Shown piece after piece: positions 3,601 to 19,941 of a DNA stretch of 63,836 bases. The DNA is taken from NCBI GenBank assembly GCA_028874175.1, contig JAPPLN010000052.1, positions 1-63,836 of the forward strand, written 5' to 3'. Every line of letters starts with the position of its first letter. Position 1 is the stretch's first letter. The notes beneath the pieces are model-generated. The model had not been told where the DNA came from. It made no database searches and saw only the letters and a program-made list of their open reading frames with translations. The DNA is from Chloroflexota bacterium. Its GTDB lineage: Bacteria > Chloroflexota > UBA11872. A program made the translations under genes and the position numbers.

Positions 3601-3677
3601 GGCACCACGTCCCTCAATGCCTCCGGCGTCGATGCAGAAGCCGTGCCGAGATGTCGCTCGAGGCAGGAGACACCCTC

Positions 3678-4550
3678 ATGGACAAGCTGGCATTCGTCGA
3701 TACGCACATTCACCTGTATGACATGCAGCACCCGGAACTGATTTACGGCCACTGGCAGCCGGGGGTTCCGCATCACACGCTGGGGTGGCAGATACAGAAG
3801 CTGGCCGAGCGGAACTACGTCGCTGAGGACTATATCGCCGAGACGCGGAACGCGAACGTGACGAAGGCGGTGCACGTGCAGGCGGCGATCGGCAGCCCGG
3901 ACCCGGTGACGGAGACGGAATGGCTGCAGGAGGCGGCGGAGCGGACCGGGTTTCCGCACGGGATCGTGGCGCACGCGGACCTGCGCGATCCCGGCGTGGG
4001 CGAGGTGTTGGAGCGGCATTGCGAGTCGCCCAACATGCGGGGGATCCGGGACTTCTCGTATGGCGACTACCTCGTGGAGCCGGACTATCACCGGGGCTTT
4101 GCGCTCTTTGAGCAGTTCAACCTGGTCTCGAGCATGCCGGCCCAGTGGCAGGACATGGAAAAGGTGCGGGACCTGGCCCACAAGTTTCCGAACATCACGA
4201 TCGTGGTGGATCACACCGGGATGCCGGATGAGCGGACGGAGGAGTACTTCGAGAACTGGAAACGGGGCGTGGCCATTGCGGCCAGCTGTGACAACGTCCG
4301 CTGGAAGATCTCGGGCCTGGGGATGGGCGACCACGACTGGACCGTGGACAGCATCCGGCCGTACGTGCTGACGTCGATCGAGACGGTGGGCGTGGAGCGT
4401 TGTTTCTTCGGCACCAACTGGCCGGTGGACTGGCTGTGGAGCACGTACGACGCAGTGATCGACGCCTACACGGAGATTGTTGCCGACTTCAGCCGGGAGG
4501 AGCAGATCCGGCTGTTCTCGGGGACGGCGGAGGAGATTTACCGCATCTGA
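3678..4550 (+). CDS. TIM-barrel amidohydrolase (amidohydrolase 2 / COG3618-like)
   Basis: A 290-residue metal-dependent hydrolase of the amidohydrolase superfamily. The first metal site is DTHIHLYD with His10 and His12. Later landmarks are VVDHTGMP on a barrel strand and FFGTNWPVDWLW near the C-terminus, where the conserved last-strand residues sit. Proteins of this group include lactonases (L-fuconolactonase, 2-pyrone-4,6-dicarboxylate hydrolase), so a lactonase or decarboxylase reaction is plausible but not proven. The start at 3678 was chosen over 3651 because GGAG precedes it at good spacing and the motif then sits at the usual distance from the N-terminus. It ends 25 bp before a convergent sterol-reductase-like gene. 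Confidence 0.85.
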   Translation: MDKLAFVDTHIHLYDMQHPELIYGHWQPGVPHHTLGWQIQKLAERNYVAEDYIAETRNANVTKAVHVQAAIGSPDPVTETEWLQEAAERTGFPHGIVAHADLRDPGVGEVLERHCESPNMRGIRDFSYGDYLVEPDYHRGFALFEQFNLVSSMPAQWQDMEKVRDLAHKFPNITIVVDHTGMPDERTEEYFENWKRGVAIAASCDNVRWKISGLGMGDHDWTVDSIRPYVLTSIETVGVERCFFGTNWPVDWLWSTYDAVIDAYTEIVADFSREEQIRLFSGTAEEIYRI

Positions 4551-4575: not shown

Positions 4576-5715
4576 TCAGTAGACCCAGGGGCAGATGCGG
4601 TACTTGACGCGGGCCTTGTATTCGGCCCACTTCTCCTCGCCGTACTTCTCGGCACAGTGCGCCTCGTCGTCCCATTGGCGCCAGGTGAATAGCGAGACGA
4701 TGAAGATGAAGTAGGTCCAGGCCCAGAGATTGGTGAAGTGACCGAAGGAGAGGCCGATAGCAAAGCAGGCGAATCCTTCGCCCATGTAGTTGAAGTGACG
4801 GGCCGCGCCCCAGAATCCGCTGCAGAGAATCTTGCGATCGCCGGCCTGGATGTATTCGGGCTCGATGATCCCGAGAAACTTGCGGTCGGGCCAGCGCTTG
4901 AACCAGTATTTCTGCAAGTTGCCGCCGCGCGAGATGGACCAGCCGAAGACGAGGAGAAGCGCGGTTCCAATGAGCCACACGTAGGTCCAGGGCGCCGGGA
5001 ATTCGGGGTTCGGATAGACGGCCATACCCCAGAGCGGGAGGATGTACAGCCAGCCGTAGATGATGAGTCCGCCCCAGATCAACTTGAAGCCGAGTTTTTC
5101 GTGGATCAGGTCGTAGGTGTAGAGCTGAACGCGCTCGAAGATGAAGTAGTCGAAGATGTATAGCGTGAAGAATGCGGTATAGAGAAAGACGCCGGGATTG
5201 AAGTTGTCGCCGAAGCGGTCGTAGTGCCATGAGGCTCCTGACATTGCGTTGAGCACCAGCATGGTTCCGCCGACGACGTACAGGTACATCTTGAGATCGA
5301 ATCGCTCATTGAATAGCGAGTGCTCGAGGGAACGGCCGGTCCAGAACGCGTGGAAAGGATTCTTGATCTCGCCTTGCGGCTGACTGAGCATGGCGACGAG
5401 GGCAATGAGCGCGGCAAATACGGTGCCCCCGGCCACGGCGTAGACCGCGGAGCGGTAGAACCAGTCGCGTGGCATGCCGGTGACTTCAGTCGCCCATACG
5501 ACGATGGCGATGATGAAGACGAGCAGACCGTTAAGCCGATAGTTGCGGGGCTCTCCGGTTTCCGGGTTGATGACGTAGCCGGGAACGCGGCGGGCCGGCA
5601 GGACGACCTGGGCAACGAAGAACACGGCAAAGATGATGAGAGGCGTGAAGAAGCCGAGGACTGCTTCGGTTGGGGAAAGCTCGAAGAGGTGTTCGATACC
5701 AAGCCATTCAATCAT
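4576..5715 (-). CDS. ERG4/ERG24-family sterol reductase, copy A
   Basis: A polytopic membrane protein of 379 residues with about nine to ten hydrophobic segments. Family hallmarks are visible. GEPRNYRLNGLLVF, about residues 53-66, corresponds to the YRxNG motif. SGFWGAARHFNYMGE matches the signature xSGxWGxxRHxNYxGD. The C-terminus YGEEKWAEY...VKYRICPWVY matches the terminal YG...W..Y...VPYRIIPxIY. The family includes C-14, C-7 and C-24(28) sterol reductases, which use NADPH to reduce sterol double bonds. Which bond this enzyme reduces cannot be told. The ATG at 5715 was preferred over an in-frame TTG at 5730 because copy B begins with the same MIEWLGIEHL. A GGGGGA site precedes it. It is one of two tandem paralogues at the left end of the sterol-like locus. 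Confidence 0.88.
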   Translation of the reverse strand: MIEWLGIEHLFELSPTEAVLGFFTPLIIFAVFFVAQVVLPARRVPGYVINPETGEPRNYRLNGLLVFIIAIVVWATEVTGMPRDWFYRSAVYAVAGGTVFAALIALVAMLSQPQGEIKNPFHAFWTGRSLEHSLFNERFDLKMYLYVVGGTMLVLNAMSGASWHYDRFGDNFNPGVFLYTAFFTLYIFDYFIFERVQLYTYDLIHEKLGFKLIWGGLIIYGWLYILPLWGMAVYPNPEFPAPWTYVWLIGTALLLVFGWSISRGGNLQKYWFKRWPDRKFLGIIEPEYIQAGDRKILCSGFWGAARHFNYMGEGFACFAIGLSFGHFTNLWAWTYFIFIVSLFTWRQWDDEAHCAEKYGEEKWAEYKARVKYRICPWVY

Positions 5716-5839
5716 GATCGGTTCCCCCAACTTTCAGTGCCGCGGCGAGTATGGAGACGATGATGGAAGCGGTCAATGAGTGGCCAGCCTTTCCTCGCAG
5801 AGTCGGCGGCACACGTTTTGGCACTCACTGGGACGTAGC

Positions 5840-6979
5840 TCAGTAGACCCAGGGACAGATGCGGTATTTGACGCGGGCCTGGTACTCGGCCCATTTCTCG
5901 GGGCCGTACTTCCGGGCGCAGTAGTGGTCGTCCTCGCGCTGGCGGATGACGAAGAGGGTGACGATCCAGATGAAGTAGGACCAGGCCCAGAGATTGGTGA
6001 AGTGGCCGAAGGCCAGCGCGATGGCGGAGGAGTGGAACCACTCGCCGAGGTAATTCATGTGGCGGGACGCGCCCCAAAAGCCGTTGACCAGGATCTTGCG
6101 GTCGCCGGCCTGGATGTACTCCGGCTGGATGAGCCCGAGGAACTTGCGATCGGGCCAGCGCTTGAAGGTGTACTTCTGCATGTTGGCGCCACGGGAAATC
6201 ACCCACCCGGTCAAATACAGGGCCGCCGCCGCGATGAGCCAGACGTACGTCCAGACCGTGGAGAATCCGGGGCTGGGATGCGCGGCCATGCCCCAGAGGG
6301 GGAGGATGTAGATCCAGCCGTAGACCATGAGGCCGCCCCAGAACATCTTGAAGCCGAGCTTCTCGTAGATCACGTCGAAGGTATAGAGTTGGACGCGCTC
6401 GAAGATGAAGTAGTCCGTTACGTAATACGTATAGAACGCGGCGACCAGGAAGACGCCAGGATTGGCGTTTTCGCCGAAGCGCTCCAGGTGCCAGGCGGCC
6501 GCGGACAGGGCGTTGAGCGAAAACATGGAGCCGCCGACGACGTAGAAGTACATTTTCAGGTCGATGCGTTCCTTCAAGAACGACAACTCCTGGACGCGCC
6601 CGATCCAGAACGCCGCTATTGGGTTCCCGGTTTCGTCTTTTGGCTGGCTGAAGACGGCTATGGCTGTAGCTATGGCTACGACCACCGTGCCGCCGGCTAC
6701 GGCGTAGACGGAGGACTGGTAGAACCACTCACGCGGCATTCCGGTGAGCTCGAACGCCCACACGATGACCGCAATTGCATACACCAGGAGACCGTTGAGC
6801 CGATAGCTGCGGGGTTTGCCGGTCTCGGGATTTGTGACGTACCCCGGAACACGGATTCCCGGCAGGACGAGCTGCACGACGAAGAATATGGCGAAGATAA
6901 TCAGCGGGGTAAAGAAGCCGAGAATCGATTCGGTTGGGGAAAGTTCGAAGAGGTGTTCGATTCCGAGCCACTCAATCAC
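5840..6979 (-). CDS. ERG4/ERG24-family sterol reductase, copy B
   Basis: This paralogue of the gene at 4576-5715 has the same 379-residue length, aligns without gaps, and by eye is identical at roughly two thirds of positions. It keeps the YRLNG motif, NGFWGASRHMNYLGE and the C-terminal VKYRICPWVY. It starts at GTG 6979, preceded by GGAGGG about 15 bases upstream. The two copies lie head-to-tail with 124 bp between them, so co-transcription is possible. Differences concentrate in the membrane segments between residues 95 and 190, as expected if the paralogues accept different sterol double bonds or substrates. Eukaryotic ERG24 (C-14) and ERG4 (C-24(28)) are likewise paralogues. That this pair splits the two roles is inference only. 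Confidence 0.88.
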   Translation of the reverse strand: MIEWLGIEHLFELSPTESILGFFTPLIIFAIFFVVQLVLPGIRVPGYVTNPETGKPRSYRLNGLLVYAIAVIVWAFELTGMPREWFYQSSVYAVAGGTVVVAIATAIAVFSQPKDETGNPIAAFWIGRVQELSFLKERIDLKMYFYVVGGSMFSLNALSAAAWHLERFGENANPGVFLVAAFYTYYVTDYFIFERVQLYTFDVIYEKLGFKMFWGGLMVYGWIYILPLWGMAAHPSPGFSTVWTYVWLIAAAALYLTGWVISRGANMQKYTFKRWPDRKFLGLIQPEYIQAGDRKILVNGFWGASRHMNYLGEWFHSSAIALAFGHFTNLWAWSYFIWIVTLFVIRQREDDHYCARKYGPEKWAEYQARVKYRICPWVY

Positions 6980-7220
6980 GACTGAAAGCCCCGCCCTCCA
7001 GCGATGCGGTAAGTATGGACAGGGGGCGGGAGACGGTCAATCAGCCGCGACGGCAACGAGGCCGCGACCATGCGAGTTGCCGTTGGTCAAGAACAGCGTT
7101 GGAGGCCACATGCGACGCGGCGCATTGCGTCACCGCATGGCCGGCCCCGGTCCAGCTGCCATAGGCTGGTCAGCGGTGGAGTGATTGTTGCACCGACGCA
7201 CCTCAGGAGGAGACGGCCGC

Positions 7221-7619
7221 GTGAGTCTCGACCAGATTCGTCACTACCAGAGCAAGCTCGCCTATGAAATGGATTCGGCGGACCTGTATGAGGCGCTGGA
7301 GAATGGCGAGCCGATCGTGGTGGTTGACGGACGCTCGGCGGGCGCCTTCGAACAGGAGCACATTCCTGGCGCCATCAGCCTTCCGCATCGAGAGATCAGC
7401 GCCAATGCGACGGCGTCGCTCGACGCGTCAAAGCGCTACGTCTGTTACTGCGACGGCATCGGCTGCAATGCTTCGACGAAGACGGCGCTGAAGCTGTTGA
7501 CGCTTGGCTTTGAGGTGCGTGAACTGACGGGCGGGCTGGACTGGTGGAAGCGGGACGGCTACGCCACGCACCAATCTCCAGGAGGAACCGGAGTCGAGTC
7601 GGGCTGCGGATGCCACTGA
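7221..7619 (+). CDS. Rhodanese-domain sulfurtransferase
   Basis: A single-domain rhodanese of 132 residues. VVVDGRSAGAFEQEHIPGA at about 33-51 is the CH2A-type motif. The active loop follows in YVCYCDGIGCNAST, with Cys77 as the likely persulfide-carrying residue and Cys82 within the loop. The C-terminus ends in CGCH, a possible metal or sulfur site. The start is GTG 7221, because AGGAGGAG lies eight to nine bases upstream. The open frame extends back to 7185 without a Shine-Dalgarno sequence. It sits between the sterol reductases and PPK2 and shows no obvious link to sterol chemistry. Confidence 0.85.
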   Translation: MSLDQIRHYQSKLAYEMDSADLYEALENGEPIVVVDGRSAGAFEQEHIPGAISLPHREISANATASLDASKRYVCYCDGIGCNASTKTALKLLTLGFEVRELTGGLDWWKRDGYATHQSPGGTGVESGCGCH

Positions 7620-7635
7620 GCCGCGCCGGTGGGCG

Positions 7636-8598
7636 CTACCAGACTTCGTTCTTGGCGTAGAGGGACTTTGCGGGCCCAATCAGCTTGGGATCGGGTTTGG
7701 GCACGCGCCTCGCGACTTCGGGGTCGTACTCGAAGCTCCGCAGCACGTAGCGCATGCAATTGAGGCGGGCGCGCTTCTTGTCGTCCGACTTCACGACCAC
7801 CCAGGGGGACGCCCTGGTATCGGTGGCCGCGAACATCAGCTTCTTCGCCTCAGTGAATTCGTCCCAGAGCGGGAGCGACCGCCGGTCGACATCGCTGAGC
7901 TTCCACTGCTTGAGGCTGTCCCGGGCGCGCGACATGACGCGGCGGAGCTGCTCCTCCTGGCTGACCGAGAACCAGAACTTGAACAGGCGGAGGCCTTCGT
8001 TGATCAGCATTTCCTCGAAGAGGACGGTGTCCCGGAGGAAGCGGACGGTCTCCGCCGGCGTGCAGAAGCCCATGACAGGCTCGACCACCGCCCGGTTGTA
8101 CCAGGAGCGGTCGAAGAACACGATTTCTCCGTTCGTGGGCAGGTGCTGGACGTAGCGCTGGAAGTACCACTGGCCACGCTCGCGCTCGGTGGGGGCCGGC
8201 AGCGCGACGACGGTGGCGCCGCGCGGATTGAGGTGCTCCATGAAGCGCTTGATGGTTCCGCCCTTGCCGGCGGCGTCCCGCCCTTCGAACAGCAAGACGA
8301 TGCGCTGTCCGGACTCCTGGACCCAATTCTGAAGCTTCAGCAACTCGACCTGAAGCTCGGCCTTGCTGGCCTCGTATGTTCGCCGCCCCATCTTGGTGGG
8401 GTAGGGGTAGGAGTCGCTGATGATCTGCCGGCGGCCGGCCTTTCCGACTTTTCGCAGGACTTTCCGAGGGATTCCGTCCGTTGGAATCAGAATCCCGGAA
8501 CTCTCTTGAACCGCAGGTGCTTCCGCCACGGAATTACCGTACGAGGGAGGCTCGGCCGCGTCAATCGCCGACGGCGGGGCCGCCGCGCCGGATGACAC
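7636..8598 (-). CDS. ppk2: Polyphosphate kinase 2 family protein
   Basis: PPK2 enzymes transfer phosphate between polyphosphate and nucleotides. This protein has the P-loop EGRDAAGKGGTI, the lid region after FFDRSWYNRAVVEPVMGF, the LPAPTERERGQWYFQRY stretch and the DVDRRSLPLW segment of the family. The single P-loop domain and the 300-340 residue length fit class I PPK2. The start is uncertain. The frame is open to a GTG at 8658, but that would overlap the divergent flavoprotein gene starting at 8618. GTG at 8598 or GTG at 8529 are alternatives, and none has a clear Shine-Dalgarno site. The core begins near IPRKVLRKVGKAGRR. It is probably a housekeeping gene embedded in the sterol-like locus. 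Confidence 0.9.
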   Translation of the reverse strand: MSSGAAAPPSAIDAAEPPSYGNSVAEAPAVQESSGILIPTDGIPRKVLRKVGKAGRRQIISDSYPYPTKMGRRTYEASKAELQVELLKLQNWVQESGQRIVLLFEGRDAAGKGGTIKRFMEHLNPRGATVVALPAPTERERGQWYFQRYVQHLPTNGEIVFFDRSWYNRAVVEPVMGFCTPAETVRFLRDTVLFEEMLINEGLRLFKFWFSVSQEEQLRRVMSRARDSLKQWKLSDVDRRSLPLWDEFTEAKKLMFAATDTRASPWVVVKSDDKKRARLNCMRYVLRSFEYDPEVARRVPKPDPKLIGPAKSLYAKNEVW

Positions 8599-8617
8599 CC
8601 GAGGGTTTCGAGGCGCG

Positions 8618-10018
8618 GTGGTAGGTTCGAGGGCGCGGCAGGTAGCGAAGCGGAGCACAACGCTGCGACGGATTGCCGTTGTCGGTGGCGGTGTCTCCGG
8701 ATTAGGCGCCGCGTGGGCGCTGCATCAACACCCGGACCGCTTTGATTTCCGGCTGTTCGAGGCCAACGTACAGGTTGGCGGCAATGCGATTACGGCCGAG
8801 ATGCGGCAGGACGACGGCAGCGACATTCCCTTTGACATCTCGGTAACCGCGTGCATCCCGTCGGTTTATCACCACATCCTGTTGTTGATGGAGAAGTTTG
8901 GCATTGAGCTGATCGACACCCGGTTCAGCTACAGCGTGAAGTACCAGGGCCGCGTGTACGCCCATGACTTCGATTCCGACATCAGGGAACAACTGCAGCC
9001 CGAGATCAGGAAGTTCCAGCGACTCTTACGGCGTCTGCATTGGATTGGATTCCTGACGCGTTCGCAGTCGAAGCTGTTGAACGCACTGAACCCGTTCAAC
9101 TACATCAGCATGGGGACGGTGCTGAACCTGGGCGGGTTTTCGGGGGACTTCAGGTACAAGATTCTGAAACCCATGTTTGTCAATTTCCTGATGGCGACAA
9201 ACGTGTTCGACATGCCGGCGGCGCTCTTCAGTCGGTACCTGGAGTTCTTCGACATCGAACGGTCAACGCCGATGCAGACGTGGGACCAGGGCACGCGCCG
9301 GATCTACGAGAACCTTACCGCAGATTTTCAGGACAAGATTTATTTCAGTCGACCTGTGCGCAAGGTGTATCGGCGGGCGTCCCACGTGGTGGTCGAAGAC
9401 GATGCCGGTGAACGCGAGACGTTTGACGACGTGATTTTTGCGTGCAACGCGAACCAGACGCTGATGATGCTGGACCAACCGACGTTGCTCGAACGCTTTC
9501 TGCTCTCATCGATACGTTACGACAGCGAGTTGCATAACCATGCGGTGGTGCACTCCGATGCCTCAGTGCTTCCGGACAACGAAGTCAAGCCGCTGGAGAC
9601 GCGGAGCAATCACATCGAGCAGTACGGGGCCAGGCCGGACAACTATGAGATCACGTACATCATGCATAACCAGCAGCCGTGGGCGAACCGGTCGGACAAG
9701 CCGTGCCTGGTGACCTATAACGCGATCAGTCCCATCGACGCGGACAAGGTCGTCAAGCGGTGGTGGTTTCAGCACATCGTGCATGACGTGAAGCACGTGG
9801 CGGTGCTGATCAACCTGTTCCAGTTCATCCAGGGCCGGCGGCGAACGTGGCACTGCGGGGCGCACACGCTTATCAACAGCCAGGAAACGTGTTTCGTCAC
9901 CGGGCTGGCCACGGCGCGGCAGTTGGGGGCCGACTACCCGTTCGACGACGCCGCGGCGCGGCGGTCCTTCAACTATTACGGGAGCATCATGTACGGACCG
10001 GGGTTCAGGAAGGCGTAG
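8618..10018 (+). CDS. FAD-dependent amine-oxidase-like oxidoreductase (COG2907 type)
   Basis: A 466-residue flavoprotein with an N-terminal FAD-binding Rossmann motif, VVGGGVSGLGAAWAL at 21-35, followed by an acidic ribose-binding segment RLFEANVQVGGNA. The C-terminus has the second FAD region, with TCFVTGLATARQLG and the final YGSIMYGPG. It resembles COG2907 flavoproteins, which are related to phytoene desaturases and are often encoded with SAM-dependent lipid methyltransferases. Here it lies beside the Rieske and P450 genes, 9 bp from the convergent Rieske gene. A role in oxidising or isomerising the sterol or lipid substrate of the locus is plausible but unproven. It starts at GTG 8618, with GAGG five bases upstream. 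Confidence 0.82.
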   Translation: MVGSRARQVAKRSTTLRRIAVVGGGVSGLGAAWALHQHPDRFDFRLFEANVQVGGNAITAEMRQDDGSDIPFDISVTACIPSVYHHILLLMEKFGIELIDTRFSYSVKYQGRVYAHDFDSDIREQLQPEIRKFQRLLRRLHWIGFLTRSQSKLLNALNPFNYISMGTVLNLGGFSGDFRYKILKPMFVNFLMATNVFDMPAALFSRYLEFFDIERSTPMQTWDQGTRRIYENLTADFQDKIYFSRPVRKVYRRASHVVVEDDAGERETFDDVIFACNANQTLMMLDQPTLLERFLLSSIRYDSELHNHAVVHSDASVLPDNEVKPLETRSNHIEQYGARPDNYEITYIMHNQQPWANRSDKPCLVTYNAISPIDADKVVKRWWFQHIVHDVKHVAVLINLFQFIQGRRRTWHCGAHTLINSQETCFVTGLATARQLGADYPFDDAAARRSFNYYGSIMYGPGFRKA

Positions 10019-10027
10019 CGCCGAGCC

Positions 10028-11143
10028 TCAGGTTGAGGCGCCGTTGCTGTCGCCGGGTTCGGGATAGAACTGGGCGCAGTAGTAGCGGAAGGGCATGATC
10101 TCGCCGTCGGAACGGCAGAGGCGGGGACGACTGGTGTACTGCTTGCGTCCCCAGATGACGACGTCCTGCAGGACGTCCTCCTTCTGCTGACTCGCCATGA
10201 ACTTGTTGATGAGGGGGGCGCGAAGCGGTGGCGGGAGGAATCCCAGGCCGACAAACAGGCGCCTGGGCTGGCGGATCTCGCGCACCTGGGAGACCAGCGT
10301 CATGTCGATGAGCGTGCCGTCGACGGGCGTGGCGAGGACCCACAGCCGCATGTTCATGCCGATGGAGTGCTCGCGGATGTCGACGAACGAGTAGCCGAGT
10401 CCGTAGATGTGGGTCTTGGCGGAGACGCTGAAGGTCAGTTTGGCGAATCCGGCGATCGTGCGGACTCGCTTGAAGTTAAAGTTACTCAGGAGACGGTGGC
10501 CATCCACCGACAATCGCTCAGGGCGGTCCACGTTGTCGTAGCCGTGGACGTAGCGCAGGTGGGCCAGGTCGACCGAGTTCTCGGTCGTCTCCTGGGGATG
10601 GCCGGGAAAGCGAAGCGTCTCGATCTCGTAGTCGCACCAGCCGTCCTGCTCCAACGGTTCGGTTGGCAGCGTCCATTGCGGCGGGCGGCCGTCGACGCCC
10701 CACCAGGCGAAGATCAGGCCATGGATGTCGTGTGTTTCGAAGACTCGCAATTTGGCGGTTCTGGGCGCCGGTGCGAACGGCGTGGCCACGCACTGGCCGG
10801 TTGCGTCGAACTCGTAGCCGTGAAAGGGGCAGACGAGCCGCCCGTCACAGACGCGACCGCCGGCGTCCGGACCCAGATCAGCGCCCAAGTGTGGGCAGAT
10901 GGCTTCGGCGACGCAGATGCGGTCGTCAACGTCGATCCAGACGACGATGTTTTCGCCCATCCAGGTTTTCTGGATCAGCCCGGCCTCTCGGACGGCCTGG
11001 CGCGACGCGACGAAGTACCAGCCTTCGGGGAATGGAGAGAGCTCGGGAGCAAGAACGGCCTGCCGGCGCTGGGCCGCCGTTGTTCTGCGCTCGGGATCGT
11101 CCAACCCGGCAAGGCCGGTTTCCTGCCGGACCTCCATGTGCAC
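10028..11143 (-). CDS. Rieske non-haem iron oxygenase, cholesterol-desaturase (DAF-36/Neverland/KshA) type
   Basis: A 371-residue protein with an N-terminal Rieske [2Fe-2S] domain: Cys83-x-His85 in AICPHLGADLG and Cys105-x-x-His108 in CPFHGYEFD. The C-terminal catalytic domain has ENSVDLAHLRYVHGY, giving Asp192, His195 and His200 for the mononuclear iron. The end of the protein, DVVIWGRKQY followed by DGEIMPFRYYCAQFYPE, matches the terminal D-x-x-IW-x-x-K-x-Y ... FR-x-W/Y-x-x-QFY pattern of cholesterol 7-desaturases and 3-ketosteroid 9-hydroxylases. These enzymes act on sterols or steroids with a separate reductase. The start GTG 11143 has GAGGAG at good spacing. It is divergent from the GPP34-P450 gene, sharing a 130-bp promoter region. 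The exact position oxidised is unknown. Confidence 0.85.
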   Translation of the reverse strand: MHMEVRQETGLAGLDDPERRTTAAQRRQAVLAPELSPFPEGWYFVASRQAVREAGLIQKTWMGENIVVWIDVDDRICVAEAICPHLGADLGPDAGGRVCDGRLVCPFHGYEFDATGQCVATPFAPAPRTAKLRVFETHDIHGLIFAWWGVDGRPPQWTLPTEPLEQDGWCDYEIETLRFPGHPQETTENSVDLAHLRYVHGYDNVDRPERLSVDGHRLLSNFNFKRVRTIAGFAKLTFSVSAKTHIYGLGYSFVDIREHSIGMNMRLWVLATPVDGTLIDMTLVSQVREIRQPRRLFVGLGFLPPPLRAPLINKFMASQQKEDVLQDVVIWGRKQYTSRPRLCRSDGEIMPFRYYCAQFYPEPGDSNGAST

Positions 11144-11273
11144 GCGGCGTCTCCTCGGACTCGGGGAGCGTCCCTATCCCCCACCTCGTATGATAGAGTC
11201 GAATGAGTCGCGGCTCGCCCGATATAGCGTCAGTTTACAGGCTAATCAGGGTCAGGCGCGGGGAGCAAGAGCG

Positions 11274-13301
11274 ATGACTCTCACTTCTGAGCCGGTGGCA
11301 ACCAAGCAACTAAGTTTGCCCGACGAACTCGTGCTGATGCTCCTCAACGAGGAGTCCGGCTACTTTTACCAGGTACCCGGTTGGCACTTGAACTGTGCGG
11401 TCGTGGGCGCCGTGCTTGCCGAACTCTCACTCTTATCGCGCATTGACACGGATATGGACTCCTTGTTTCTCGTGGATTCCACGGAAACCGGGAATGCCAT
11501 CCTCGACTCAATACTCAAGGAAATAGCCGAGGAATCCGACCAGCGGAACGCCCAATATTGGATTGAACGGCTTGCTCCGCGTGCAGAATCAATCGTCGAT
11601 TCGACGCTGGAACGACTCGTCGACCTGAAGATCCTGGAGTACCACGAGGGTGAGTTCTGGACGCTGTCACGGACTGCCTGGCAGTCCGAGCTTGCAGGCG
11701 GTCCGGCCGAAGGCACGGCGGCTCAATTCGTGAGGACGCGCATCGGTAAAGTCATCTTTAACAACGAGATACCTGATCCACGCGATGTGATCATCGTCTG
11801 CCTGGTCAACACATGCGATGTATTTCGCTTCATGTTCCAACTCGAGGACCAGGACGAGGAACGCATTGATCTCATCTGCAACATGGACCTGATCGGCCGG
11901 TCCATTGCCGCCGCGGTATCCGAGAGTCTCGCCGGACCGTTGCTTCAGCGCTCAGCCCTGACCAAGAAGATTCCGGTAGTCCCGCTGCGCCGGTTGGTGT
12001 TCAATCGACATCTTCGCAGTGGCAATTTTCCCGCACTCTTCGCGGATCTGGCCGAAGAATTCGGCCCGGTGTTCGAGCTCCGACCGCCCTTCCAGGATCC
12101 AATGATCTTCCTGGCCGGTCCCGAGACGAATCGCTGGGTGCATCGAAACGGGCGCATGTACCTCAGAACCAAGGACTATTTTTCGGACTTCGAGAAGGTT
12201 TACGGCGCGTCGGGCGTATTGCCATCCCTGGATGGCGCGGATCACTTCCGGCTTCGTAAGTCGTTGGGGCCAGCATATTCCCGCGGAAGATTGATGGGGC
12301 AACTGGACCAGGTTTACAAGGATGCGCGGACCCATATGGCGGACTGGACGGTGGGAGATTCCTACCCCGCCACGCGCATGTGCCGGCGAATGATAAACGC
12401 GCAACTCTCGCCGCTGATGATCAGCATTGACTCCCAGGATATTTTTGACGACTTGACGGTTTTCAAGGAACGGGCGCTCAACGTTCACATCCTGAAAGTC
12501 CTACCCAAGTTCATGTTGAAGACGCCGAGCATGAGACGCCGGCTGAAGATCCTGGACCAACTGGTGGAGAAGGTCCAAAGCGGGCATACGCCGGCCCAGC
12601 GGGCTGGAAGTCCGCGGGACCTGGCGGATGACCTGCTGAGCCTGCACGCCAGTGATCCGCAATTCGTCCCGGAGACGAATCTGCGCTTCGTCCTCTCAGC
12701 CGCGCTGATTGCCAGCGTCTATCTTGGCGATGCGTTCAGCTTCGTGCTGTACGCCATGGCGTCAAAGCCGGAGCTCTACAAGCAAATCCGTGTCGAAGCC
12801 GACGCCTTGTTCGCCGATGGCGATCCCGATGCAGGGGCCTTCAGACCGCAGGCGATCGACGTCACGCACCGATTCCTGATGGAATGCCTGCGGGTGTACC
12901 CAATCGTCCCGGTGTCTCTGCGAACGGTGATGAATACGTGCGTGGTCGAAGGCTACCGAATACCAATCGGGTCACAGGTCTACATTGCCCAGACGGCCGC
13001 GCATTACATGAGCGACGTGTTCCCCGATCCCTTGAAATTCGATATCGACCGCTACCTGCCTCCGCGCAACGAACATCGCAGTTCCGGGTATGCCCCGTAC
13101 GGGCTGGGCACGCACCGGTGCCTTGGGGTGGGGTGGATGGAACTGCAGCTGGCCGTCAACGTGCTCCTGGTGGCGCACCACTTCACGCTCGAAGTGTCCC
13201 CGCCGAACTTCCAGCTCGGGTTCAACCCGCTGCCGTCGATGAAGCCGAGCAAGAAGCTGAAGTTTCGCATTGCCGAACAGCGGCGCGAACTCAACGTCTG
13301 A
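11274..13301 (+). CDS. GPP34 (GOLPH3-like) domain fused to cytochrome P450
   Basis: A 675-residue chimera. Residues about 12-220 are a GPP34 domain: LSLPDELVLMLLNEESG, then AVVGAVLAELSLLSRI, FLVDSTETGNAILDSIL, and a second helical half ending near SESLAGPLLQ. GPP34 is the fold of GOLPH3, which binds phosphoinositides at Golgi membranes. Its bacterial versions are little studied. Residues about 230-670 are a P450: ExxR as ECLR (Glu537, Arg540) and the haem loop YGLGTHRCLGVG with Cys616 as thiolate ligand. The I-helix reads IASVYLGDAFSF where AGxD/ETT is expected, so the usual acid-threonine pair is replaced by Val-Tyr. The ATG 11274 has GGGGAG upstream. The open frame back to 10899 overlaps the Rieske gene and lacks homology. 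Neighbours suggest a sterol or related lipid substrate. It cannot be called CYP51. Confidence 0.9.
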   Translation: MTLTSEPVATKQLSLPDELVLMLLNEESGYFYQVPGWHLNCAVVGAVLAELSLLSRIDTDMDSLFLVDSTETGNAILDSILKEIAEESDQRNAQYWIERLAPRAESIVDSTLERLVDLKILEYHEGEFWTLSRTAWQSELAGGPAEGTAAQFVRTRIGKVIFNNEIPDPRDVIIVCLVNTCDVFRFMFQLEDQDEERIDLICNMDLIGRSIAAAVSESLAGPLLQRSALTKKIPVVPLRRLVFNRHLRSGNFPALFADLAEEFGPVFELRPPFQDPMIFLAGPETNRWVHRNGRMYLRTKDYFSDFEKVYGASGVLPSLDGADHFRLRKSLGPAYSRGRLMGQLDQVYKDARTHMADWTVGDSYPATRMCRRMINAQLSPLMISIDSQDIFDDLTVFKERALNVHILKVLPKFMLKTPSMRRRLKILDQLVEKVQSGHTPAQRAGSPRDLADDLLSLHASDPQFVPETNLRFVLSAALIASVYLGDAFSFVLYAMASKPELYKQIRVEADALFADGDPDAGAFRPQAIDVTHRFLMECLRVYPIVPVSLRTVMNTCVVEGYRIPIGSQVYIAQTAAHYMSDVFPDPLKFDIDRYLPPRNEHRSSGYAPYGLGTHRCLGVGWMELQLAVNVLLVAHHFTLEVSPPNFQLGFNPLPSMKPSKKLKFRIAEQRRELNV

Positions 13302-13340
13302 GGCGCCCGCGGGCACCCGCGCGCCCGGGCCGGAGCCAGC

Positions 13341-14405
13341 CTAGCCGGGCTTGCGCGCCAGGAAACAGTACAGCGGGGTGAAGATCCCGGTCTGCCCGCC
13401 CGCGACGTAGGCGTTGGCGGTCCGATCCATCAGCCGGATGACGTCCGCGGAGCCCCTGGGAAAGAGTCCCAGCGTCTCGGCCAGCCTGGATGTCGCGACG
13501 AGGACTTTGCGGCCGACCGGTAGCCTGCGGATGGCGTTGCCCACCGTGCCCCCCTGGGTCAGCATGGGCTGATACCACGGGGTTGTCGGACCGTCTTCGA
13601 CGACTGCCCGGTCCCTGCCCTCGATGACCTGAAAGCCGGCCATTTCGAGGGCTGAGTTCACCTCGCCCATCGTCGCGATGTCCTTGAGGGCAATGCCGTG
13701 CATGAGCTCCTGCCTGATGGCCCGGTGCCGGTCGTCGTCGGGATCGAAGCGATCCGTCAGGCACATTTCCTGACCCCAGAAGAGGGCGCCGGGCTTCAGC
13801 ACGCGGTAGATCTCGGCGAACGCACCCACCTTGTCCGGCGCGTGGCAGGTCGATTCGATCGCGTAGGCCCGGTCGCAGGTGTCGTTCGCGATGGCGCCCA
13901 TGTCCATGAAGCTACAGGCGAGATAGTCGACCATGTGGTCCAGCCCGGCCTCGGCATTTAGCGCTCTCGCCTTGTCCAACTGGACTTCACTGCTATTGAC
14001 CCCGATAACCCTGACGCCGGCCTCGCGGACGACCCGGCGCATGGGGCCGCCAATCCCGCAGCCGACATCGATCACCGTCATTCCTTTGCTCAACTGGAGC
14101 CTGGCAATCATCAGCCGCTGGTGCCGGATCTTGGATTCCTCGAGGCTTTCCGTGGGCGACAGCGGCGCGAAGTGGAGCGATGCGCCCCAACCGAACACCA
14201 TGAACTCGCTGCACAGGTCGTAGTACTCCCTAACGGTCTGAGCGTGGTCGTAGCCCGACGCGCCGGCGTCCTTTCCAGACGCTCTGCGAGTCCATCCATC
14301 GAAATGGGACACGCGACGCCGGGGGTCCGATCCGCGATACGCAGCCTTCAGGCCGCTGGATAGATTTCGGAGTTGCGAGAACTCGTTCGAAAACGGGAGT
14401 TGCAC
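13341..14405 (-). CDS. Sterol C-24 methyltransferase homologue (ERG6/SMT family)
   Basis: SMTs transfer a methyl from SAM to C-24 of a sterol side chain. This 354-residue protein matches the whole SMT layout. YYDLCSEFMVFGWGASLHFA at 61-80 is the sterol-binding region I, equivalent to YEYGWGxSFHFAPR. ESLEESKIRHQRL at 86-98 corresponds to GESLxESIxRHE. The SAM motif is VIDVGCGIGGPMRR at 111-124. YAIESTCHAPDK at 181-192 corresponds to AIEATCHAP. DGPTTPWYQP lies at 271-280, and the C-terminal TGIFTPLYCFLARKP matches the Sterol_MT_C end of ERG6. Length is close to yeast ERG6. The start is GTG 14405. It lies 188 bp downstream of the RND transporter on the same strand. Bacterial SMTs are rare, so this is the strongest single indicator of sterol chemistry here. 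Confidence 0.88.
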   Translation of the reverse strand: MQLPFSNEFSQLRNLSSGLKAAYRGSDPRRRVSHFDGWTRRASGKDAGASGYDHAQTVREYYDLCSEFMVFGWGASLHFAPLSPTESLEESKIRHQRLMIARLQLSKGMTVIDVGCGIGGPMRRVVREAGVRVIGVNSSEVQLDKARALNAEAGLDHMVDYLACSFMDMGAIANDTCDRAYAIESTCHAPDKVGAFAEIYRVLKPGALFWGQEMCLTDRFDPDDDRHRAIRQELMHGIALKDIATMGEVNSALEMAGFQVIEGRDRAVVEDGPTTPWYQPMLTQGGTVGNAIRRLPVGRKVLVATSRLAETLGLFPRGSADVIRLMDRTANAYVAGGQTGIFTPLYCFLARKPG

Positions 14406-14593
14406 GTCTAGTTCTGGAAGCAGTTCACGGGCCGGGTGTGAACGTGCGGCCCGTTTGGCATGGCTCTACCGTAACCGAGCAAAACCGCGCCAGCAACGCT
14501 CACCCGGCGCTTAGGAGGCGGCCGGCCATTTACCGTCGATCGAGCGATTTCCGGAAGCGAACGACCGCGAGCTGAGCCGCTCTCCGGCACCGG

Positions 14594-17071
14594 TCAGGCC
14601 GAACCTTGTTCCTCTTCGTGCCGCCGATACACGTCCTCGATCGCGACGTCGAGGTCGGACCACTCGCGCTCCACCATCGAGCGCAGCCGCATGTTCTGGT
14701 AGGCGCCCCAGATCGTCATTGCGGGCGGCACCAACACGATGGCCACGATCAGGGAATAGGCGATCGTGATCGCCGCGGTGATCCCGAACTGCTGCGATCC
14801 GGCCAGCGGCGACGCCGCCAGGACGCCCAGGCCCAGCGCGGTGGTCATCGCCGAGCCCAGCAGGGCCGACCCGGTGGTCGCCAAGGTCCGCACAGCGGCC
14901 TCCTCCGGGTTGCGCAGGCGGGCGAACTCCTCCCGGTATCTGTGGATCACGTGGATGGTGTAGTCCACGCCGATGCCGATCGAGAGCGCGGTGATGATCG
15001 AGGTGATGATCGTGTAGGGGATGCCCAGGAGCGCCATGGTCCCGAGCACGCAGATCAGCACGAGCACGATCGGTCCGACCGCGACGATCGCCAACGCCGG
15101 CTGGCGAAGCGTCACCCAGAAGAAGAGGGCCAGGACGGACAAGGCCGCCGCGACCGTGGTGGCGATGGCCTCGGTCTGGCGCGCGGTTACCGAATCGGTG
15201 ACGGTGATCGAGATGATGCTCTCGGAAGTCGCCGTGATTGCCTCGTCGTCACCGGCCCAGATCGCCTCGATTTCGCCCTGGAGCACTTTGGTTGCCTGCG
15301 TATCGCCCCCGTAACTCTGGAACTGGAGCAATATGGCGTCGATGCCCTGCGGGTTGTTGACCAGGAGGCGTGAGAGGGCCGGATCCCTGGCCTCGATCCG
15401 GTCAAGGACTTCCTGCATCAGCTGCGGATCGAGCCGCACCCCGGCCGAGGCTTCGCGGAACAGCGCCGCGATCTCGGGGTCGTACTTGTCGCCGGGCAGA
15501 CCACTCTGGGTGGTCCAGTCACGCACCAGCAATTCGTACGAGGCCTGGATGGGACCTGCCGCGGTCGGCGGACGACGAGTCTCGTCCGCAAACGCGTCTG
15601 TGAGGTCCTGCACATTGAGGAGCGTACGGGTCTGCGTCGCCTCGGCCTTAATGAGCACACTCGTCACCTCGGCCGAGCCACCGACGGCCGCTTCGAGGGT
15701 GTCCATGTCCGCGTGTATGTCTCCGCCCCTTGGGAGGATGTCCTTGATGCTGAATTCCGATTTGAGCCCGGTGGCGGCAATCCCGAGCCCAACGGTGACG
15801 GCGAGCACGACGAGGATGTACGGGAGGGGCCAGCGGGTCACGCTGCGACCAATCAGCCCGGCCAATCCCTGAATACCGGGCAGTGCGTTGACGATCGGGC
15901 GAGCGGGCTTCAGCTTGCCGCGGGCCTCGCGCCGCCGGTCGATGATCGTCCGACTGGCCGGGACCAGCGTGAGCATGACGATCAGGCTCATGCCGACGCC
16001 CATGCCGGCGACGACGCCGAAGTCGCGAACGATGCCGATGGGTGAGAACAGGCTGGCCAGCATGCCCACGATGGTGGTGACGGCGGCCAGGAGCAGCGGA
16101 ACCGTGACGTGGCTAAGCCCCCGGCGAATGGCCGTGAGCACGTCCTGACCTTCGACCCGCTGCTCGCGGTAGTGCGAGATGGTCTGGATTGCATAGTCCA
16201 CGGTCAGCCCGATCACGATGATCGGCACCAGCGAGGTCAGCGAGTTCGGCGGGCCGATCAGACCCAGCGCGTTCGGGCCGAGCCAGCCTTCGGCGCCGAT
16301 GATCCAGATGATTGAGGTGAGGAGTCCGGCCAGCGTCAGCCACATATCCGACAGCGCGCGCGTAAAGAGCAGCAGCAGCAACGCGATCAGCAGGAAGGCC
16401 ACGCCGATCAGCGGCGCCATCCCCTCCTCGATGCCGGCCTTGTATCCGTCCTCGATCACGATGAAGGAGATGCTGCTGGCGCGCAGCGGGCCCTTGGAAT
16501 CGGCGGCCAGCTGGTTGATCTTCCGTTCAGCCGCCGCCAGGTTCTCGTCGCCGGTGTCAAGGAGGCGAATGTTGCCGATCGCGATCTTGGTGCCGTCCGT
16601 ATCGGTTCCGGTCATGAGAGCGAGGAGCGGCTGGACTTCCGGAAGTACGCGTACCGTGTCGATCTGGGCCTGCGTAACCGCCTCCAGACTCTGGATCTGA
16701 AGCGCGAACTTGATCAGGGAAGAGGGCGCAAAGACCGGGTTTTCAGGGGCCAGGAGCTGTTGCACGCCCGGGTCGCTGGCGATGTCGTTGACCAGAGCGT
16801 CCATCTGGGCCAGCCCGGCGGGCGTGAGCGCGTCGCCGCGGAACAAGAGGGTGACGGCGCTGATTTCACCGTGGTCGCCGAAGAGCTGATTGATCTCGTC
16901 AATTGCGTCAGCAACCGGGCTGTCATCGGGCAGCGTCTCCGCCGTTGACGGGAGCGGGGCGCGCACCGCGCCGCCGGCGCCGAGGGCAATGGTGACGATG
17001 AAGACGACGAGGAGGGTGATCCAGGGGCGGGCCGTGACCAGCCAGCTGAACTTGGTGAGGACCTGGTTCAT
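14594..17071 (-). CDS. RND-superfamily transporter (MMPL/HpnN type), candidate lipid or sterol exporter
   Basis: An 825-residue inner-membrane protein with the two-fold RND layout. TM1 lies near residue 20, followed by a large periplasmic domain of about 40-205, TM2-6, then TM7 near 420, a second periplasmic domain of about 440-620, and TM8-12. The TM4-like segments hold PIIVIGLTVDYAIQTI and ALSIGIGVDYTIHVIHRY, the G-x-x-x-D-Y motif typical of MMPL/HpnN/sterol-sensing-type transporters. The C-terminus is cytosolic and Glu-rich. The family moves hydrophobic molecules such as hopanoids, and BstA, a bacterial sterol transporter, is also RND-type. Placement just upstream of the SMT on the same strand makes the product of the locus a plausible cargo. 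That is inference. Confidence 0.88.
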   Translation of the reverse strand: MNQVLTKFSWLVTARPWITLLVVFIVTIALGAGGAVRAPLPSTAETLPDDSPVADAIDEINQLFGDHGEISAVTLLFRGDALTPAGLAQMDALVNDIASDPGVQQLLAPENPVFAPSSLIKFALQIQSLEAVTQAQIDTVRVLPEVQPLLALMTGTDTDGTKIAIGNIRLLDTGDENLAAAERKINQLAADSKGPLRASSISFIVIEDGYKAGIEEGMAPLIGVAFLLIALLLLLFTRALSDMWLTLAGLLTSIIWIIGAEGWLGPNALGLIGPPNSLTSLVPIIVIGLTVDYAIQTISHYREQRVEGQDVLTAIRRGLSHVTVPLLLAAVTTIVGMLASLFSPIGIVRDFGVVAGMGVGMSLIVMLTLVPASRTIIDRRREARGKLKPARPIVNALPGIQGLAGLIGRSVTRWPLPYILVVLAVTVGLGIAATGLKSEFSIKDILPRGGDIHADMDTLEAAVGGSAEVTSVLIKAEATQTRTLLNVQDLTDAFADETRRPPTAAGPIQASYELLVRDWTTQSGLPGDKYDPEIAALFREASAGVRLDPQLMQEVLDRIEARDPALSRLLVNNPQGIDAILLQFQSYGGDTQATKVLQGEIEAIWAGDDEAITATSESIISITVTDSVTARQTEAIATTVAAALSVLALFFWVTLRQPALAIVAVGPIVLVLICVLGTMALLGIPYTIITSIITALSIGIGVDYTIHVIHRYREEFARLRNPEEAAVRTLATTGSALLGSAMTTALGLGVLAASPLAGSQQFGITAAITIAYSLIVAIVLVPPAMTIWGAYQNMRLRSMVEREWSDLDVAIEDVYRRHEEEQGSA

Positions 17072-19312: not shown

Positions 19313-19344
19313 CACGCCAGCCCGACCAGGCAGGAAAAGCGCAG

Positions 19345-19941
19345 ATGACGGGGTCGATGACGCGCGTCGTGGGAGTCGCGCTCGTGCTCAGTGCCCTGTG
19401 GTTCCTCGGGAGCCTGGCCGCTGTCCACGCGTGTAAGTGCGTGGTGCCCGGTTCGCCGACCGAAGAGCTGGAGAAATTTGACGCCGTCTTTGCTGGGACG
19501 GTGATTTCGGTTCAGCACTCCTTCGATCCAAATGCGACGCCATACAAGCCCGGTGACCGAACGACGGTCGGCTTTGACGTCAGCACGGTGTGGAAGGGCA
19601 TCGTGCATGAGCGGACGTACATCACGACGCCGCCAACCGGCGGGAGCTGCGGGTTTGCCTTCAGCGAAGGTGAACCCTACATCGTGTACGCCTCCGGGAG
19701 CGCTTCAGGCGACGCTGGCCACCAGGCGAGTATCTGCAGTCGGACCGCTCATCTGCAGGAGGCCCAGTCCGACCTGGAGGCGCTGGGCGAGGGCCGGGCC
19801 CCGCAGGTCGAGACAGGCGGCCCGGAGCCCGAACAGCCGGAGGGCTCGCTGGCTGCCGGCGCGTGGGTGGGGCTGCTGGCGACGGCCGTGGTAGTTCTTG
19901 GATCCGGTGGGATTCTGGCCTACGCGAGTCGGCGGCGCTAG
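19345..19941 (+). CDS. Exported TIMP/netrin-like domain protein with C-terminal membrane anchor
   Basis: A 198-residue protein. A hydrophobic signal segment covers residues 7-28 and ends AVHA. The expected mature N-terminus is Cys30-Lys-Cys32, followed by VVPGSPTEELEKFDAVFAGT. An N-terminal Cys-x-Cys just after signal cleavage, an AVFAGTV strand, VSTVWKG, a TPPTGGSCGFAF segment and a later Cys in QASICSRT match bacterial TIMP-like (NTR fold) proteins. In animal TIMPs the N-terminal Cys chelates the metalloprotease zinc. Residues about 168-194 form a transmembrane anchor followed by SRRR, so the domain would face outward. ATG 19345 has AGGAA upstream; the frame upstream overlaps the amidohydrolase. 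Inhibition of a protease is inferred from family only. Confidence 0.72.
   Translation: MTGSMTRVVGVALVLSALWFLGSLAAVHACKCVVPGSPTEELEKFDAVFAGTVISVQHSFDPNATPYKPGDRTTVGFDVSTVWKGIVHERTYITTPPTGGSCGFAFSEGEPYIVYASGSASGDAGHQASICSRTAHLQEAQSDLEALGEGRAPQVETGGPEPEQPEGSLAAGAWVGLLATAVVVLGSGGILAYASRRR

What the first reader, a model, noticed from the sequence alone, without database searches (positions are those of the whole stretch)
4576..17071. Apparent bacterial sterol-modification locus: two sterol reductases, Rieske, P450, SMT and RND transporter
Within 12.5 kb lie two ERG4/ERG24-type sterol reductases, a Rieske oxygenase with the C-terminal signature of cholesterol desaturases, a P450, an ERG6-like C-24 sterol methyltransferase, an FAD oxidoreductase and an MMPL/HpnN-type RND transporter. 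The motifs are read directly. Each family is known for sterol work: SMT methylates C-24, ERG4 and ERG24 reduce C-24(28) and C-14 double bonds, DAF-36/Neverland desaturate C-7, and RND BstA moves sterols. Together they imply tailoring and export of a C-24-alkylated sterol. Rhodanese and PPK2 interrupt the set and the strands alternate, so it is a cluster and not one operon. No squalene epoxidase or cyclase is present in the window, so substrate could be made elsewhere or scavenged from a host.
Basis: partly seen in the sequence, partly recalled or inferred. Interest (0 to 1): 0.93.

Follow-up and report, generated by a model that had tools for sequence, protein, structure and literature searches.

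The report
Shared sterol-remodelling cluster of sponge symbionts
A Chloroflexota genome, likely from a sponge symbiont, shares with bacteria of several other phyla a conserved gene cluster that is predicted to remodel sterols taken from the host or neighbouring microbes, because 47 of 50 such genomes examined show no sterol-forming cyclase; this would bear on who makes the unusual sterols of sponges.

Summary
The P450 (11274-13301) is fused to a GPP34 (GOLPH3-like) domain. SMT, GPP34-P450, KshA-type Rieske, an LkcE-like FAD oxidoreductase and an RND pump recur together: all five in 22 of 81 loci, SMT+P450+Rieske in 41 of 81, at median 59-81% identity. In the window's class, 23 of the 24 genomes with the P450 fusion also carry ERG4/24-type reductases. 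In two Nitrospirota genomes the same genes adjoin a full de novo sterol cluster (epoxidase-cyclase fusion, CYP51, ERG24, SdmA, SdmB, second SMT), which ties them to sterols. Yet an oxidosqualene-type cyclase was found in only 3 of 50 cluster-bearing genomes, and 22 of 50 show no triterpene cyclase, so the substrate is probably imported. The SMT forms its own clade, with the F/Y-E substrate motif replaced (Met 81 of 81, Val 70 of 81), and the P450 lacks the usual I-helix threonine, so position and chemistry are open. De novo sterol clusters and active SMTs of sponge symbionts are published; this stand-alone tailoring module did not turn up in my searches.

The parts
4576..5730 (-). ERG4/ERG24-family reductase a (384 aa)
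   Evidence: PF01222 124.7 bits; one of two in the own genome
5840..6979 (-). ERG4/ERG24-family reductase b (379 aa), tandem with a
   Evidence: PF01222 140.6 bits; PDB 4quv Delta14-sterol reductase 112.5 bits, conserved C-terminal region
7185..7616 (+). Rhodanese gene between the parts; probably not a member
   Evidence: PF00581 59.1 bits
7636..8658 (-). Polyphosphate kinase 2 gene between the parts; probably not a member
   Evidence: TIGR03707 361.3 bits over cut-off
8618..10018 (+). FAD oxidoreductase, amine-oxidase/LkcE type (466 aa as called; true start may lie a little downstream)
   Evidence: PF01593 55.0, PF13450 39.1 bits; LkcE 97.3 bits over residues 17-451; within the fetched DNA of 32 of 81 loci
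10028..11143 (-). Rieske oxygenase with KshA_C domain (371 aa)
   Evidence: PF00355, PF19298; 50 of 81 loci
11274..13301 (+). GPP34-cytochrome P450 fusion (675 aa); GPP34 about 11316-11918, P450 about 12018-13205, haem Cys616
   Evidence: PF05719 105.8 and PF00067 113.4 bits; all 120 listed homologues carry both domains; predicted structure mean pLDDT 83.6; 47 of 81 loci
13341..14405 (-). SMT-A, sterol-methyltransferase-family protein (354 aa)
   Evidence: Sterol_MT_C 57.0 bits; own clade 100/100; Met-Val in place of F/Y-E in region I
14594..17071 (-). MMPL/HAE3-type RND transporter (825 aa)
   Evidence: PF03176 146.2, PF12349 50.6 bits; this type in 29 of 81 loci, 28 of them Chloroflexota and the window

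Best explanation
This is a conserved sterol-family gene cluster, shared by genomes of several bacterial phyla, that likely remodels sterols obtained from the sponge or from sterol-making neighbours instead of making sterols from scratch. Shown: the genes and their families, their recurrent linkage, their adjacency in two genomes to a full sterol pathway, and no oxidosqualene-type cyclase detected in 47 of 50 carriers examined. Inferred: the RND pump moves the lipid across the cell envelope; SMT-A puts a methyl group from S-adenosylmethionine on a side-chain double bond, possibly at a position or on a substrate other than canonical C-24 methylation; the GPP34-P450, the Rieske oxygenase and the FAD oxidoreductase oxidise or desaturate the sterol, with the GPP34 part holding the P450 at the membrane; the reductases saturate remaining double bonds.
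For: Linkage: around 81 SMT-A genes (window and 80 loci) the fetched DNA holds SMT+P450+Rieske in 41 and all five genes in 22; distances of all ten gene pairs correlate, r 0.58-0.82, 0 of 999 permutations as high. Sterol context: in Nitrospira SB0662_bin_26 (L113) the P450 fusion, SMT-A and Rieske are followed within about 14 kb by SMT-B, a 1201-aa epoxidase-cyclase fusion, CYP51 (338 bits to M. capsulatus CYP51), ERG24 (250 bits), SdmA (414 bits) and SdmB (297 bits); Nitrospirales Plut_88904 has the same with the FAD gene. Imported substrate: of 50 locus genomes, oxidosqualene-type matches (728-738 bits) in 3, any cyclase match of 180 bits or more in 28, none above 21 bits in 22; strong epoxidase matches only in the same 3; own genome no epoxidase match and a squalene-hopene cyclase (720.5 bits, cut-off 431.1). 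Reductases: in 41 class genomes 23 have P450 fusion and reductase, 1 only each, 16 neither. RND: 36 of the 41 core loci have one of three RND families nearby.
Against: No activity is shown. SMT-A lacks the canonical region I residues, and 2 of 10 sponge-metagenome SMTs tested in PMC10070321 did not methylate desmosterol, so SMT-A may not act on sterols. The oxidosqualene, SdmA and SdmB matches of the Nitrospirota clusters are the best for their proteins but lie below NCBIfam's curated cut-offs. Adjacency to a full pathway was shown in two related genomes only. 12 of 53 near-full-length loci have none of the four partners beside SMT-A. Carriers are incomplete bins, so absences are not proof. 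In the class the P450 fusion also associates with hopene cyclase (17/7/3/14, Fisher p 0.0013), mainly through the window's own family (outside it 2/7/0/13).
Confidence: 0.62

Rival explanations
1. The cluster tailors hopanoids or other endogenous squalene-derived or isoprenoid lipids; the window genome itself has a squalene-hopene cyclase.
For: Own cyclase is a squalene-hopene cyclase beside the C-terminal end of what looks like HpnE (L003; HpnE read by eye, not by a family search). In 41 class genomes P450 fusion and hopene cyclase are associated (17/7/3/14, p 0.0013). The pump's family includes HpnN at low score.
Against: 22 of 50 carriers show no triterpene cyclase above 21 bits; outside the window's family 7 of 9 P450-fusion genomes have no cyclase, and three family genomes have the cyclase without the fusion. 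In Nitrospirota the genes adjoin oxidosqualene-type cyclase, CYP51 and SdmAB.
Confidence: 0.12
2. The cluster starts breakdown of host sterols as food: KshA-type Rieske, P450 and FAD enzyme attack ring and side chain.
For: The Rieske enzyme is closest to 3-ketosteroid 9alpha-hydroxylase among solved structures (92 bits) and has the KshA_C domain.
Against: A methyltransferase, reductases and an RND pump do not fit breakdown. A search for the ring-cleavage dioxygenase family TIGR03213 gave no match in the own genome and none over the cut-off in 51 genomes; one carrier (G025) came near, 339.5 of 366.45 bits. Other breakdown genes (KstD, Mce, side-chain enzymes) were not searched.
Confidence: 0.08
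3. The SMT-like enzyme and its partners make a different natural product, such as a methylated terpenoid or an oxidised polyketide-like compound, exported by the RND pump.
For: SMT-A's region I is altered; the P450 lacks the usual threonine; the FAD enzyme's nearest solved relative is LkcE of lankacidin synthesis; the best PDB matches of the methyltransferase are natural-product enzymes such as MitM (73.7 bits), no true SMT structure being in that list.
Against: Sterol_MT_C domain; adjacency to the sterol pathway in Nitrospirota; co-occurrence with PF01222 reductases. No terpene synthase or polyketide gene is among the Pfam matches in the interval.
Confidence: 0.11
4. It is a decaying remnant of a former complete sterol cluster without a present function.
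For: A fuller arrangement exists in two Nitrospirota genomes and the cyclase is undetected in 47 of 50 carriers. Two class genomes show an in-frame stop in a gene of the set: G088 and G075 in the P450 protein (G075 being a 35% paralogue), and G090 in a reductase.
Against: Window frames are intact, and median identities between loci are 59-81%, which argues for selection, though dN/dS was not computed. The window's reductases are a different type (about 104-140 bits) from the ERG24 of the full cluster (about 237-249 bits).
Confidence: 0.03

Closest known systems
Clusters of steroid genes (CSGs) of Ircinia symbionts: ERG24-CYP51-LSS, often with SMT (PMC9531527, passages read)
   Same: Multi-phylum spread among sponge symbionts, inferred horizontal transfer, SMT and ERG24-family genes
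   Different: The window cluster has no cyclase and no clear CYP51; it has a GPP34-P450, a KshA-type Rieske, an FAD oxidoreductase and an RND pump instead, and a different SMT subfamily
Functional SMTs of uncultured bacteria and sponge symbionts (Brown et al. 2023, PMC10070321; parts 1-3 of 7 and Methods section 11 read)
   Same: SMT family; sponge-symbiont source
   Different: SMT-A's region I is Met-Val-(F/W/Y) instead of F/Y-E-Y/F; whether an SMT-A enzyme was among those assayed is unknown, as the supplement could not be read
msb sterol locus of a Melophlus gammaproteobacterial symbiont (PMC7074536, passages read)
   Same: Sterol-family genes including Rieske, reductase and SMT; its authors suggest other community members may modify a delivered sterol core
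   Different: msb contains a fused epoxidase-cyclase and C-14 demethylase; the window set does not
SdmAB C-4 demethylation of bacterial sterols (PMC10202945, passages read)
   Same: Rieske oxygenase acting in sterol tailoring
   Different: Window Rieske scores 31.2 of 600 bits for SdmA; true SdmA-like genes occur beside it in Nitrospirota (414 bits)
KshA, 3-ketosteroid 9alpha-hydroxylase (PDB 4qdf)
   Same: Rieske + KshA_C architecture, best solved match
   Different: Remote (92 bits); no steroid breakdown genes recognised beside it
Delta14-sterol reductase (PDB 4quv)
   Same: PF01222 family, match over residues 34-379, conserved C-terminal region
   Different: Remote (112.5 bits); lower-scoring type than the ERG24 of the de novo clusters
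HpnN and BstA lipid RND transporters
   Same: RND/MMPL family with sterol-sensing-type match
   Different: Far below curated cut-offs

Membership tests
Sterol methyltransferase (ERG6/SMT) | SAM-methyltransferase domain plus Sterol_MT_C domain | tested here: met
   PF08241 59.0 bits and PF08498 57.0 bits (cut-off 21.7)
Sterol methyltransferase (ERG6/SMT) | Region I aromatic/acidic motif (F/Y)E(Y/F)GWG at the Tyr81 stretch | tested here: not met
   Window MVFGWG; SMT-A Met 81 of 81, Val 70 of 81, Glu 4 of 81; SMT-B F/Y and Glu 18 of 18. Region I named after PMC5711494 passages; the exact motif is recalled
Sterol methyltransferase (ERG6/SMT) | Methylates sterol C-24 | not testable with these tools
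   needs enzyme assay
De novo bacterial sterol cluster (CSG) | Oxidosqualene cyclase | tested here: not met
   Own genome only squalene-hopene cyclase (TIGR01507 720.5 bits; TIGR03463 263.9 of 851); single cyclase match in the genome, genome 92% complete
De novo bacterial sterol cluster (CSG) | Squalene epoxidase | tested here: not met
   PF08491, no match in the own genome
De novo bacterial sterol cluster (CSG) | CYP51 sterol 14-demethylase | tested here: inconclusive
   Window P450 about 80 bits to M. capsulatus CYP51 against 338-351 for the CYP51s of L113 and L112; rest of own genome not searched for CYP51
SdmA C-4 demethylase | NCBIfam NF052579 curated cut-off | tested here: not met
   31.2 of 600 bits
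KshA-type Rieske oxygenase | Rieske + KshA_C domains | tested here: met
   63.1 and 85.7 bits
DAF-36/Neverland cholesterol 7-desaturase | Phylogenetic grouping with DAF-36/Neverland | not tested
   no reference sequence at hand
ERG4/ERG24 sterol reductases | PF01222 over cut-off | tested here: met
   124.7 and 140.6 bits, cut-off 27
ERG4/ERG24 sterol reductases | C-14 or C-24(28) specificity | not testable with these tools
   needs enzyme assay
Cytochrome P450 monooxygenase | Haem Cys motif | tested here: met
   Cys616 in 31 of 31 aligned proteins
Cytochrome P450 monooxygenase | I-helix threonine of the acid-alcohol pair | tested here: not met
   AGHHTSS of CYP51 aligns with ASVYLGD; Leu in 45 of 51, Thr in 1 of 51
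GPP34/GOLPH3 | PF05719 over cut-off | tested here: met
   105.8 bits, cut-off 29.1
HpnN / BstA lipid transporters | NCBIfam curated cut-offs | tested here: not met
   HpnN 111.8 of 751.85 bits, BstA 36.4 of 1400

The most novel reading that the evidence does not exclude
Sponge symbionts run a shared, horizontally spread sterol assembly line: a few lineages make the sterol core, and many others that cannot make sterols import it and rebuild it with this module, whose SMT-A subfamily installs unconventional side-chain carbons together with a GPP34-tethered, atypical P450. The module would be a missing source of at least some sponge-specific sterols that serve as animal biomarkers.
Probability: 0.27. 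Interest if true: 0.92.

Novelty: new variant of a known kind. Interest (0 to 1): 0.72.

Why it matters
Whether sponges or their bacteria make the unusual side-chain-alkylated sterols of sponges is open, and it bears on 24-isopropylcholestane as a candidate oldest animal biomarker (PMC10070321, introduction and part of the discussion read). Published work has stressed symbionts with complete sterol pathways. A module carried by many symbionts that seem unable to make sterols would mean that sterols are traded and edited within the sponge community. It gives a defined set of five to seven genes to express, a new SMT subfamily, and a GPP34-P450 fusion of unknown chemistry.
Full report
What is there. 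The interval 4576-17071 holds intact genes for two ERG4/ERG24-family reductases, an FAD oxidoreductase, a KshA_C-type Rieske oxygenase, a GPP34-P450 fusion, a sterol-methyltransferase-family protein (here SMT-A) and an MMPL-type RND transporter, with a rhodanese and a polyphosphate kinase 2 gene in between. The Rieske gene and the P450 fusion diverge from a 130-base gap, the P450 and SMT genes converge, and the RND gene precedes the SMT gene on the same strand.

The source. The window is contig C2 of a 3.3 Mb metagenome-assembled genome, 92% complete, 121 contigs. The nearest SMT-A among the loci is 95% identical, in a Chloroflexota bin, RHO2_bin_72. By label the 80 loci (the best 80 of 223 relatives) are 17 RHO, 16 SB06, 14 jk18x, 7 COS, 3 IRC, 3 p16x, 1 APA, 9 numbered bins, 7 with UUID names, and 1 each Plut, CO36387 and 277c. 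The jk18x bins are from Caribbean Ircinia (PMC9531527, passages). RHO, COS, IRC and APA fit the sponge species listed in PMC8163846 (passages), which is an inference from the labels. SB06 and the numbered bins are recalled as Ircinia ramosa and Aplysina aerophoba symbionts, Plut as a coral data set; the others are unverified. So the sponge link rests on papers plus labels for 42 of 80 loci.

The set is conserved. In the DNA fetched around 81 SMT-A genes (window and 80 loci, many cut by contig ends) the P450 fusion is present in 47, the Rieske in 50, the FAD gene in 32, this RND type in 29; P450 and Rieske both in 41; all five in 22. Of 53 loci with nearly the full 21 kb, 31 have P450 and Rieske and 12 have none of the four partners. 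Median pairwise identity is 71% for SMT-A, 68% for the P450 fusion, 59% for Rieske, 81% for FAD and 68% for RND; distances of all ten gene pairs correlate, r 0.58-0.82, with 0 of 999 permutations as high (not corrected for organism phylogeny). The 41 loci with SMT-A, P450 and Rieske are 26 Chloroflexota, 6 Gemmatimonadota, 4 Pseudomonadota, 2 Nitrospirota and 3 without a phylum label, the window among these. The pump changes with the phylum: 26 of these 41 have the window's MMPL type, 7 an AcrB-type family (Gemmatimonadota and Pseudomonadota), 3 another MMPL family, and 5 none of the three in the fetched DNA.

Link to sterols. In Nitrospira SB0662_bin_26 (L049, L113) the P450 fusion, SMT-A and Rieske are followed within about 14 kb by an outer-membrane-barrel gene, a second SMT, a 1201-residue epoxidase-cyclase fusion, a CYP51, an ERG24, SdmA and SdmB. 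Nitrospirales Plut_88904 (L043, L112) has the same genes plus the FAD gene. The cyclase, SdmA and SdmB matches (about 727, 414 and 300 bits) are the best of their proteins but below NCBIfam's curated cut-offs (851, 600, 600), so they are members by best match only. I take this adjacency as the main tie to sterols; it is seen in two related genomes.

No sterol synthesis detected in most carriers. I searched 50 of the 80 locus genomes, picked for the P450 fusion near SMT-A. None passes the curated oxidosqualene-cyclase cut-off; three have matches of 728-738 bits, fused to an epoxidase; 28 have some cyclase match of 180 bits or more, counting those 3; 22 have none above 21 bits. Epoxidase matches over the Pfam cut-off occur in 7 of 50: strong (77-89 bits) in the same 3, weak (20-23 bits) in 4 others, and the controls E. 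coli and Caulobacter match too. In the 41 genomes held for the window's class none passes the cyclase cut-off and the best has 272.5 bits, the level of hopene cyclases. The window genome has one cyclase, a squalene-hopene cyclase by score (720.5 bits), and no epoxidase match. If the substrate is a sterol it has to come from outside in most carriers; incomplete bins are a caveat. PMC9531527 reports cyclase-bearing clusters in other Dehalococcoidia bins and in one Aplysina Chloroflexota bin (passages), so sterol makers exist close by.

Reductases. Of the 41 class genomes 24 carry the P450 fusion (E up to 1e-100) and 24 carry a PF01222 reductase over cut-off; 23 carry both, one only the P450 (a 35% paralogue, G075), one only the reductase (G053), 16 neither; outside the window's family the split is 8, 1, 0, 13 (kinship not corrected). 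Among the 50 locus genomes 35 carry a reductase and 15 do not. Beside the cluster itself reductases at 60% identity or more were found in 9 of 81 loci. They belong by co-occurrence more than by position, and they are not universal.

The SMT. The window protein is one of two SMTs in its genome; the other, on contig C98, is 41% identical. All 20 class genomes with SMT-A also have the P450 fusion; 13 of the 20 have a second SMT. SMT-A is one clade with 100/100 support on a long stem. In region I, which PMC5711494 (passages) gives as the aromatic sterol-binding stretch from Tyr81 of yeast Erg6, SMT-B has F/Y and Glu in 18 of 18 rows, SMT-A has Met in 81 of 81 and Val in 70, Ile in 5, Glu in 4 of 81. 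I infer a shifted substrate or position. PMC10070321 found 8 of 10 sponge-metagenome SMTs active on desmosterol; whether an SMT-A enzyme was among them is unknown to me.

The oxidative enzymes. The P450 aligns over its length with CYP51 at about 80 bits, with ASVYLGD in place of AGHHTSS; the position of the usual threonine is Leu in 45 of 51 proteins and Thr in 1. Peroxide use, help from the substrate, or other chemistry are possible; this is inference. The predicted structure is a P450 preceded by the GPP34 region; membrane tethering is recalled from eukaryotic GOLPH3. The FAD enzyme is closest to LkcE among solved structures, the Rieske to KshA and far from SdmA.

Reading. The most likely function is a sterol-tailoring module for imported sterols, 0.62. 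Against it stand the altered SMT motif, the lack of any assay, and an association of the P450 fusion with hopene cyclase in the class (17/7/3/14, p 0.0013) that comes mainly from the window's own family. Sterol breakdown is less likely: the ring-cleavage dioxygenase family was not found in the own genome and not over cut-off in 51 genomes, although one carrier came near (339.5 of 366.45 bits). The kind is known, since sterol clusters and functional SMTs in sponge symbionts are published (PMC9531527, PMC7074536, PMC10070321). The cyclase-free module, its SMT subfamily and the P450 fusion did not turn up in my ten searches of an open-licence library. PMC7074536 (passages) itself suggests that a sterol core delivered by one symbiont may be modified by others, which is what this module would do.

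Noticed in passing
L100:2023-3387 (G000:C98:2377-3381): A second SMT in the window's genome with a canonical region I (FEYGWG), 41% identical to the window SMT, with no recognised sterol gene beside it in the fetched 12 kb.
   Followed up: partly
L003:1471-3363 (G000:C100): Squalene-hopene cyclase next to the end of a gene that looks like HpnE, so the organism probably makes hopanoids.
   Followed up: partly
L113:5996-9601; L112:6375-10001; G043:C31: Squalene epoxidase and oxidosqualene-type cyclase fused in one frame of about 1130-1210 residues in three carriers.
   Followed up: partly
L114:3428-5300, L062, L073, L079, L051, and class genomes G062, G075, G086: A paralogous GPP34-P450 family at about 34-49% identity; in L114 it lies next to the epoxidase-cyclase gene.
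   Followed up: no
L057, L061, L066, L067, L072, L074, L075, L077, L078, L079: An AcrB-type RND pump replaces the MMPL pump near the SMT/P450 genes in Gemmatimonadota and some Pseudomonadota loci.
   Followed up: partly
window 17888-19312: An amidohydrolase gene beyond the RND end of the cluster is kept in several close relatives (71-79% identity).
   Followed up: no
window 3651-4550 and 1869-2942: A second amidohydrolase-like gene and a hydroxyacid-dehydrogenase-like gene (names read by eye, no family search) are kept beside the reductases in close relatives.
   Followed up: no
G088:C20, G090:C9: In-frame stop codons in the P450 fusion of G088 and in a reductase of G090, a sign of loss or of assembly error.
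   Followed up: no
window 19843-19931: ARAGORN calls a tRNA-Ala(ggc) inside the end of an open frame at 19294-19941; possibly a false call.
   Followed up: no
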